From the NCBI GenBank assembly GCA_028280405.1, contig JANQLW010000060.1:43435-107434 (forward strand): 64,000 nt of DNA, in the 5' to 3' direction. This document shows positions 36,650 to 37,966 of the stretch, piece after piece. Each line of letters starts with the position of its first letter. Position 1 is the stretch's first letter. The stretch is from Bacteroidales bacterium (GTDB taxonomy: Bacteria > Bacteroidota > Bacteroidia > Bacteroidales > GCA-2711565). Made by a program: the position numbers and the translations under genes. The notes below the pieces were generated by a model. That model ran no database searches and was not told where the DNA came from. It saw only the letters and a list, made by a program, of their open reading frames with translations.

Positions 36650-37966
36650 ATGAAAAAATTAACATTAACTTTAGCACTAACATTAGGTTTGTCGAGCCTG
36701 GTCATTGCACAACAAATGACAAAACCTCAGCTCATCAAAGCTGAAGGAAAAGCAATTTCTTTAAAACCATCTTATGCTTCTCCCGTATTCTTTGACCTGG
36801 ATAAAGATGGCAAAATGGAATTAATCGTAGGAACTTTCTACGGAGATTTCAGAGTTTATAAAAACGAAGGAACAATAGAAAATCCTGTTTATAATAAATT
36901 CGCCAAAATTCAGGCAGGTGGTAAAGATGCCAAAACTGCCAATTGGTGATGTACAGCTGTTCACCCACAGTTTGTGGATATTAATGCCGATGGGAATACC
37001 GATTTATTAGTAGCTGGATATGGAGGATTTGCTGACATCTATTATGGGAAAGCAGATGGAACATTCGCTGAAGCTAAACCATTGTTAAATGAAGATGGTG
37101 TAAAAGTAAACCTGGGATCTTATTGGTGCTATGACCAAAACATTTGGACTACCTTTGCCCGTGAAAAAATTAAAAAGGGCGGAATAAGCCATGCAGAAAT
37201 TGCACTTCAGGAAAAAATTGAACAACAATCAACGCATTTTACTTTATTAACGGTTGTAGATTGGGATAATGATGGAGATTATGACTTAATCCTAAACTCT
37301 CAACCTAAAGTTGCTAAAAAGGATTCTGATCAAAAACCTAAAGTTTGTCTGAATATTGGAGACAAAAAGAATCCAAAGTTCAGTCGCAAGGTATTTGAAA
37401 TAAAAGAAATAAGCAGAGTACATTATGCAGAAGCTATCGGTGACTGGGATGGAGACGGATTATTCGACATCATTTCAGGTTCGAAAGGATACCATGTTCA
37501 ATTCTACAAAAACATTGGGAAGTTAGGAAAACCTAAATTTGCTGAGCCTGTTATACTGTTTAAAAATGAAGATTTCATTAATGGAGCGCATGGTGGAGAA
37601 GTATGGATTATGCAACCAAGTATATGTGATTATAATAATGATGGGAAACTGGATCTTCTTATAGGAACAAATACAAACAATAATATCCCTGCAAAGCTTA
37701 CAAAAGAGCAAAAAGCTGAAAGAACTGAACTTGAAAAGGTATTAAAAGAAACGATTGATGGTATTACGAAATATAATAATGCCTATTATAAAAAGCATGG
37801 TCAACCTAAAACAAATGAGGCCTATAAAAAGATGACTGAAACATTAAACAAAAATGCAGATTTCAAAGCACTTGTAGAAAAACAAAAAGAGGTCTATACT
37901 AAACTATGGCCATTGAAAGATAAGATGGAAGGCGGAGGTTATGTTTGGGTTAGCCTGAGAAAATAA
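36650..37966 (+). CDS. Putative selenoprotein: secreted FG-GAP/VCBS-repeat protein with in-frame UGA (Sec) at codon 100, Sec-Cys motif
   Basis: ORFs 36650-36949 and 36974-37966 are in the same frame with one TGA at 36947-36949. Read-through gives AKTANW-U-CTAVHPQFVDINADGNTDLLV, aligning with ETG-U-CIGFTPQFVDLNNDGYMDLV of the 1721-2839 gene. Confidence 0.87.

What the first reader, a model, noticed from the sequence alone, without database searches (positions are those of the whole stretch)
36650..37966. Second, paralogous Sec-Cys propeller-type selenoprotein downstream of a SusC/SusD pair
The same architecture recurs 34 kb away on the opposite strand: TGA at 36947-36949, context NW-U-CTAVHPQFVDINADGNTDL versus TG-U-CIGFTPQFVDLNNDGYMDL. 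Two independent paralogs keeping TGA-TGC at the same aligned position argue strongly against sequencing error or pseudogenization.
Basis: partly seen in the sequence, partly recalled or inferred. Interest (0 to 1): 0.92.

Follow-up and report, generated by a model that had tools for sequence, protein, structure and literature searches.

The report
Selenium-containing beta-propeller protein family
The in-frame stop codon in this gene almost certainly encodes the rare amino acid selenocysteine: it marks an apparently undescribed family of secreted, propeller-shaped selenium proteins, about twenty of them in this one bacterium and one to four per genome in a 17-genome sample, mostly Planctomycetes and Verrucomicrobia, which probably do redox chemistry outside the cytoplasm beside nutrient-uptake channels.

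Summary
Confirmed, and larger than reported. The window gene 36650-37966 is an FG-GAP beta-propeller with a signal peptide, read through one UGA (36947-36949) as Sec-Cys. The genome (a 3.87 Mb Bacteroidota assembly) has 20 intact paralogs, all with UGA-Cys at this column. It also has tRNA-Sec, SelA, SelB and a Sec-type SelD. A scan of 85,488 species' genomes with the column left free gave 73 UGA, 9 Cys codons and nothing else, mainly in Planctomycetota and Verrucomicrobiota. A conserved hairpin lies 15 nt after the UGA. It needs the codon GTG, used in 90/90 Sec forms but 1/9 Cys forms; synonymous reshuffling never recreates it. dN/dS after the UGA is 0.09-0.41. SelB is present in 30/31 Sec-form genomes and 4/7 Cys-form genomes. 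No FG-GAP selenoprotein is in a 2026 inventory of 119 families, in NCBIfam, or in the papers searched. Most paralogs lie downstream of SusC/SusD pairs, often beside thioredoxin-like or DsbD_N proteins. DsbD_N domains are also fused to or beside relatives in other phyla. I infer an extracytoplasmic selenenylsulfide oxidoreductase supplied with electrons by DsbD_N-type proteins; its substrate is unknown. A second apparently new selenoprotein family (RC-Sec, seven paralogs) sits immediately downstream.

The parts
36650..37966 (+). FG-GAP beta-propeller selenoprotein gene (438 aa, signal peptide, Sec100-Cys101)
36947..36949 (+). UGA read as selenocysteine
36965..36977 (+). SECIS-type hairpin CCAC-AGUUU-GUGG, starting 15 nt after the UGA. 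It is the family consensus but not the lowest-energy fold of this single copy.
1721..2839 (-). Second window member of the family (372 aa, Sec112-Cys113), in the selenium gene cluster
2504..2506 (-). UGA of the second member
2476..2488 (-). SECIS-type hairpin of the second member
38125..39594 (+). Downstream partner: RC-Sec protein with a C-terminal DsbD_N domain (489 aa, Sec272); seven paralogs in the genome, each with one TGA
38938..38940 (+). UGA of the RC-Sec protein
38955..38972 (+). Hairpin after the RC-Sec UGA (approximate ends), at about the same distance and with compensatory changes among the seven paralogs
29131..29685 (+). ECF sigma factor of the locus
29874..31055 (+). FecR-type anti-sigma factor
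31187..34663 (+). SusC-type TonB-dependent transporter
34674..36275 (+). SusD-type outer-membrane lipoprotein
1..1412 (-). selB, cut by the window edge (whole gene about C91:42834-44846)
10851..12260 (-). selA
   Evidence: TIGR00474, 538.9 bits
12289..12382 (-). tRNA-Sec (anticodon UCA)
7422..8486 (-). YedE-type putative selenium transporter
   Evidence: TIGR04112, 485.9 bits
5771..6943 (-). Cysteine desulfurase family protein; resembles selenocysteine lyase SclA but below that model's cut-off

Best explanation
SHOWN by sequence evidence (about 0.97): the gene encodes a genuine selenoprotein. UGA at codon 100 is decoded as selenocysteine by the genome's own SelA/SelB/SelD/tRNA-Sec system, directed by a hairpin starting 15 nt downstream. 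The mature protein is a calcium-loop FG-GAP beta-propeller exported by a signal peptide. INFERRED (about 0.55): adjacent Sec100-Cys101, in the coil between the last strand of blade 1 and the first strand of blade 2, form a reversible selenenylsulfide active site on one face of the propeller. It accepts electrons from a DsbD_N-type domain, which is fused to the propeller in some members and encoded next to it in others, the electrons coming ultimately from the cytoplasm through DsbD. It uses them to reduce an oxidised substrate met outside the cytoplasm. In this bacterium one or more copies are attached to many sigma/FecR-controlled SusC/SusD loci, so the likely role is redox processing, or redox protection, of imported material or of the uptake machinery. 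The substrate is not known; disulfide, sulfoxide or peroxide groups are the first candidates.
For: 20 intact paralogs, all UGA-Cys. With the Sec column free, 73 TGA, 9 TGC/TGT and 0 other. A profile search not based on that pattern gave 31 hits in 17 genomes: 24 with exactly one TGA, 7 with none, no TAA/TAG. At least 3 Sec/Cys changes on the tree. Hairpin codons: GTG 90/90 in Sec forms versus 12-38% background and 1/9 in Cys forms; CCA 85/90; CAG 90/90. Synonymous resampling gave 0/200 and 0/300 comparable hairpins. dN/dS after the UGA 0.085-0.41 over 15 pairs. SelB over cut-off in 30/31 Sec-form and 4/7 Cys-form genomes; no SelB above cut-off and no family member in the five same-genus genomes. 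AF2 pLDDT 88.9, pTM 0.86. DsbD_N fused in Verrucomicrobia, Gammaproteobacteria and this genome, adjacent in Pedobacter, Seonamhaeicola and a Pirellulales genome. Gene order sigma-FecR-SusC-SusD-propeller with TlpA-like, thioredoxin and DsbD_N neighbours. The genome's one DsbD_TM protein is in line with a propeller gene on contig C63.
Against: No peptide, selenium-labelling or activity data. Planctomycete members mostly have no consistent neighbours: DsbD_N was the commonest, but only 3 of 63. The C63 DsbD follows tilS and may be there for unrelated reasons. Single-sequence folding of the window copy does not favour the hairpin (z about 0); the case rests on the family consensus. One Sec-form MAG (G073) lacks a SelB match over cut-off. 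No relative of known function shares the Sec-Cys loop.
Confidence: 0.65

Rival explanations
1. The Sec-Cys pair is a metal- or metalloid-binding site (for example copper, mercury or selenium itself) on a secreted propeller. It would scavenge or sequester a metal beside TonB-dependent transporters rather than catalyse redox turnover.
For: Adjacent selenolate/thiolate would bind soft metals. The loci are TonB-dependent transporter loci with ECF/FecR control of the type used in metal and nutrient uptake. One member lies inside the selenium gene cluster.
Against: DsbD_N domains recur with the family across phyla, fused or adjacent. Thioredoxin and TlpA-like neighbours, and a Sec-thioredoxin (WUGPC) in one locus, point to redox use. 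Cys substitutes are CC at the same place, typical of redox Sec/Cys pairs.
Confidence: 0.2
2. The protein is a structural or binding subunit (glycan- or peptide-binding propeller) whose Sec-Cys bond is a static or switch-like selenenylsulfide, not a catalytic centre.
For: FG-GAP propellers of known structure include binding proteins (integrins, lectins). Vicinal disulfides in other proteins can be structural (own knowledge).
Against: Keeping UGA across at least 20 paralogs and several phyla is costly, and Cys would do for a static bond. The DsbD_N association implies redox cycling.
Confidence: 0.12
3. UGA is a real stop: sequencing error, pseudogenes, or two separate genes (a 99-aa peptide and a GTG-started 330-aa protein at 36974-37966).
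For: Standard gene calling gives only the 330-aa ORF.
Against: UGA is retained in 20 paralogs and in dozens of unrelated genomes, with Cys as the only alternative. Both sides are under purifying selection. The GTG that would start the second ORF is the hairpin's conserved Val codon. One true remnant, with an extra TAG (contig C74), shows what decay looks like.
Confidence: 0.02
4. The genome reassigns UGA to another amino acid such as Trp or Gly in general.
For: None.
Against: UGA is a normal stop in 3 of 41 window genes, and those 41 genes have no internal TGA. tRNA-Sec, SelA, SelB and SelD are present. The column is Cys, not Trp or Gly, in the other forms.
Confidence: 0.01

Closest known systems
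Bacterial SelB/SECIS-dependent selenoproteins (for example formate dehydrogenase FdhA)
   Same: In-frame UGA, tRNA-Sec/SelA/SelB/SelD, hairpin just downstream inside the coding region, Cys homologs
   Different: None of the 119 families listed in PMC13188914 is an FG-GAP/VCBS propeller, and the paper says most characterised ones have a thioredoxin-like fold; P0001, P0002 and P0003 match no NCBIfam selenoprotein model
FG-GAP/integrin-type beta-propellers (CRTAC1, integrin alpha, ITFG2)
   Same: FG-GAP_3 repeats, DxNxDGxxD calcium loops, sequence-profile and fold matches
   Different: Only distant (about 10% identity, TM-scores 0.3-0.4). No Sec-Cys or Cys-Cys pair at this site is known to me in them. 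The window protein carries its own long C-terminal helices.
DsbD/CcdA periplasmic reductant pathway
   Same: DsbD_N domains fused to or beside the propeller; full DsbD in the genome
   Different: The acceptor would be a propeller with a vicinal Sec-Cys instead of a thioredoxin fold; the electron route is inferred
TonB-dependent receptor selenoprotein (FCYXU type, NF049945)
   Same: A known selenoprotein linked to TonB-dependent uptake (table in PMC13188914; PMC12013277)
   Different: There Sec is in the receptor itself; here it is in a separate secreted propeller, and the window's SusC has no in-frame TGA
Vicinal Cys-Sec/Cys-Cys redox centres (thioredoxin reductase GCUG, PQQ methanol dehydrogenase CC)
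   Same: Adjacent pair; in methanol dehydrogenase also in a propeller (own knowledge)
   Different: Analogy only: different folds, order Sec-Cys rather than Cys-Sec, no shared domain

Membership tests
Bacterial selenoproteins | Single in-frame UGA with coding constraint on both sides | tested here: met
Bacterial selenoproteins | Homologs with Cys at the UGA column | tested here: met
   80 Sec and 8 Cys of 88 aligned, nothing else
Bacterial selenoproteins | SECIS-type hairpin shortly after the UGA | tested here: met
   consensus hairpin and synonymous constraint; not the lowest-energy fold of the window copy alone
Bacterial selenoproteins | tRNA-Sec, SelA, SelB, SelD in the genome | tested here: met
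Bacterial selenoproteins | Sec actually inserted in the protein | not testable with these tools
   needs mass spectrometry or 75Se labelling
Any listed prokaryotic selenoprotein family | Match to a named selenoprotein family (2026 inventory of 119; NCBIfam release 20) | tested here: not met
   literature searches. The NCBIfam scan used P0001-P0003, and the selenoprotein-neighbourhood paper PMC12013261 is not held, known only through the review's table.
FG-GAP beta-propellers | FG-GAP repeats with calcium loops | tested here: met
   PF13517 1.2e-20; conserved Asp/Gly of five loops
FG-GAP beta-propellers | Propeller fold | tested here: met
   AF2 model pLDDT 88.9; distant matches to FG-GAP propellers of known structure
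Thioredoxin-fold redox selenoproteins | Thioredoxin fold with CxxC/UxxC | tested here: not met
   no such Pfam match, beta-repeat domain
Polysaccharide utilisation locus | SusC/SusD pair plus carbohydrate-active enzymes | tested here: inconclusive
   SusC/SusD present; the same-strand genes after SusD in the window locus are the two selenoproteins only; not searched systematically elsewhere
DsbD-dependent periplasmic redox partners | Physical or genetic link to DsbD_N | tested here: met
   fusion and adjacency in several phyla; electron transfer itself not testable here

The most novel reading that the evidence does not exclude
A new structural class of selenoenzyme: secreted calcium-dependent beta-propellers with a vicinal Sec-Cys active site, driven by DsbD_N partners that include a second new selenoprotein family (RC-Sec). 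In at least one Bacteroidota lineage it has been multiplied to 20 copies and plugged into many outer-membrane uptake systems, giving a selenium-dependent mode of nutrient acquisition.
Probability: 0.4. Interest if true: 0.92.

Novelty: new variant of a known kind. Interest (0 to 1): 0.85.

Why it matters
Most characterised prokaryotic selenoproteins are thioredoxin-like or classical redox enzymes, so a widespread propeller family adds a new fold and a new cellular place (outside the cytoplasm, next to outer-membrane uptake) for selenium chemistry. At least 27 selenoprotein genes in two apparently new families, plus selD, would put this genome among the richer bacterial selenoproteomes, and standard gene calling probably splits or truncates such genes in many Planctomycetota and Verrucomicrobiota genomes. 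It also gives a clean set of natural Sec/Cys pairs and a very constrained hairpin for studying SelB recognition.

Tried and rejected
Pseudogene, sequencing error and UGA reassignment were tested and rejected. Single-sequence folding of the 54 nt after the UGA is weak (mean z -0.9 own, -1.5 external, -0.4 Cys forms) and for the window copy not significant; the codon-constraint and synonymous-resampling tests decided the question. A scan of 399 Bacteroidota genomes found the Sec family only in this one; the other hits are distant FG-GAP proteins. Planctomycete neighbours gave no consistent operon. Foldseek and PDB profile matches are only fold-level and do not tell the substrate. A pair-count call on a protein alignment was an error on my side. 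A tentative glutathione-peroxidase-like Sec-Gln-Trp reading was dropped: the Gln codon is part of the hairpin, so its invariance is confounded, and for the external sequences the search pattern required it.

Full report
WHAT IS THERE. The second window copy is at 1721-2839 on the minus strand, TGA at 2504-2506. Pfam finds FG-GAP repeats on both. An ECF sigma factor, FecR, SusC and SusD run directly upstream on the same strand.

THE GENOME. Searching the window's own assembly (3.87 Mb, 91 contigs) with the read-through protein gave a large family, each member with one TGA. After fetching the regions I count 20 intact genes, all with TGA followed by a Cys codon at the same column, plus a decayed remnant with an extra TAG on contig C74 and fragments on C22 and C90. 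The Sec machinery is complete: tRNA-Sec at 60 bits, SelA, SelB overlapping the window's left edge and a SelD that itself has an in-frame TGA. UGA is a normal stop elsewhere: 3 of 41 window genes end in TGA and none of the 41 has an internal one.

OTHER ORGANISMS. Of 82 matches, 73 have TGA, 6 TGC and 3 TGT; nothing else occurs. Most are Planctomycetota, with Verrucomicrobiota, one Armatimonadota, Gammaproteobacteria, Seonamhaeicola and Pedobacter. In an 88-sequence alignment the column is 80 Sec and 8 Cys, and the next residue is Cys in all 88. Because the pattern itself demands that second Cys and PQFVD, I also searched 17 of these genomes with a profile: 31 strong hits, 24 with exactly one TGA, 7 with none, none with TAA or TAG. 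On a maximum-likelihood tree the Sec/Cys state changes at least three times. The two window genes lie in different deep clades, and 13 of the 20 own genes form an expansion seen only in this genome.

SECIS. The 13 bases CCAC-AGUUY-GUGG begin 15 nt after the UGA in nearly all Sec forms. The hairpin needs specific synonymous codons: Val GTG in 90 of 90 Sec forms (background 12% in own genes, 38% in external genes) but 1 of 9 Cys forms; Pro CCA in 85 of 90 (background 25% and 9%); Gln CAG in 90 of 90 (p from 1e-9 to 1e-65, treating sequences as independent, which overstates significance for related ones). RNAalifold finds this hairpin as the only consensus structure, and resampling synonymous codons from each gene's own usage never recreates it (0 of 200 for all Sec forms, 0 of 300 for own genes). 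Single copies vary; the window copy alone does not fold preferentially into it.

SELECTION AND CO-OCCURRENCE. Over 15 paralog pairs more than 55% identical, dN/dS after the UGA is 0.085-0.41 (simple Nei-Gojobori estimates, with synonymous sites near saturation in several pairs). SelB scores over its cut-off in 30 of 31 genomes found through a Sec form, and in 4 of 7 found through a Cys form, at least one of which (G077) also has a Sec copy. Five genomes of the same genus lack both the family and SelB (three of them are only 68-87% complete). Among 399 sampled Bacteroidota only this genome has the Sec family, so it was probably gained, or kept, together with the Sec system here.

STRUCTURE. AlphaFold2 with 49 aligned sequences gives a confident beta-repeat model (mean pLDDT 88.9, pTM 0.86) with a C-terminal helical region. 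Foldseek and profile matches are to FG-GAP propellers such as CRTAC1, ITFG2 and integrin alpha, at fold level only. Sec100-Cys101 lie in a coil between strand 81-86 and strand 107-109, just before the first strand and calcium loop of the second blade; that this is the open face of the propeller is my inference from propeller geometry. They are the only conserved thiol/selenol pair.

NEIGHBOURHOOD AND MECHANISM. Most own genes sit in sigma-FecR-SusC-SusD loci, usually downstream of the SusC/SusD pair on the same strand, directly or after a few genes. Exceptions or less clear cases are the C61 copy, whose SusC lies beyond it in the direction of transcription, one C91 copy (UGA at 25222) that is separated from the nearest SusD by another propeller gene and ABC-transporter genes, and the window copy 1721-2839, which lies between the selenium genes and selB. 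Neighbours include a TlpA-like protein, thioredoxins, one of them with a TGA in WUGPC, DsbD_N proteins, NHL-repeat proteins with a DUF4369 domain, and an S9 peptidase. The strongest functional clue is DsbD_N. It is fused to the propeller in Verrucomicrobiales, Gammaproteobacteria and this genome, and is the next gene in Pedobacter, Seonamhaeicola and a Pirellulales genome. The genome's only DsbD_TM protein, a full DsbD, is on C63 in line with a propeller gene, although tilS lies between. I therefore infer that the pair works as a selenenylsulfide oxidoreductase outside the cytoplasm, reduced through DsbD_N. The substrate is unknown. Planctomycete copies are mostly stand-alone, so the SusC/SusD link is a feature of this lineage (and of the Pedobacter Cys form), not of the whole family.

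THE PARTNER. The gene directly downstream (38125-39594) is a second read-through gene: 489 residues, DsbD_N at its C-terminus, UGA at 38938-38940 in RC-U. The genome has seven paralogs, each with one TGA and all RC-U, and a hairpin at about the same distance with compensatory changes (GGACA/UGUCC, GGAAU/AUUCC, GGAGG/CCUUCC). Pfam and NCBIfam give nothing beyond DsbD_N. I did not search for its Cys homologs elsewhere.

NOVELTY. A May 2026 review listing 119 prokaryotic selenoprotein families contains no FG-GAP, VCBS or propeller family (PMC13188914). NCBIfam release 20 has no matching model. Full-text searches for selenocysteine with FG-GAP found nothing; with VCBS, SusD or beta-propeller nothing relevant. 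The paper on selenoprotein neighbourhoods (PMC12013261) is not held, and supplementary tables could not be read, so an unlisted mention cannot be excluded. Planctomycetes with Sec genes have been described (PMC4807772), but its main text does not mention FG-GAP or VCBS proteins.

Noticed in passing
38125-39594 (+); paralogs L198-L204: Second apparently new selenoprotein family: DsbD_N-containing proteins with an RC-Sec motif, seven paralogs, each with one TGA and a hairpin after it.
   Followed up: partly
L052:13610-14803 (-), contig C91 about 33.6-34.8 kb: Thioredoxin-domain protein interrupted by TGA at WUGPC, a likely Sec-thioredoxin in a propeller/SusC/SusD locus.
   Followed up: partly
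L080, contig C51:89201-90118 (+): The genome's SelD has one in-frame TGA (Sec-type SelD).
   Followed up: no
20388-21989 (-): NHL-repeat protein with a DUF4369 domain and two CC motifs; about ten relatives in the genome, often next to the propeller selenoproteins, none of the intact ones with a TGA.
   Followed up: partly
9638-10606 (-): Transglutaminase-core gene beside selA; a planctomycete Sec operon with a transglutaminase-core gene is described in PMC4807772. This could hint at transfer of the Sec cluster.
   Followed up: no
3071-8486 (-): Selenium cluster between selA and the minus-strand propeller gene: NapH-like Fe-S protein, ModA-like binding protein, NifB-like radical SAM protein below the NifB cut-off, cysteine desulfurase, YedE transporter. 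The radical SAM/ModA/NapH trio has no obvious role.
   Followed up: partly
12450-12827 (+) and 39662-40291 (-): By eye, these two ORFs share similar sequence; the first looks like a truncated copy (KilA/ORF6N-like), next to tRNA-Sec. Not tested.
   Followed up: no
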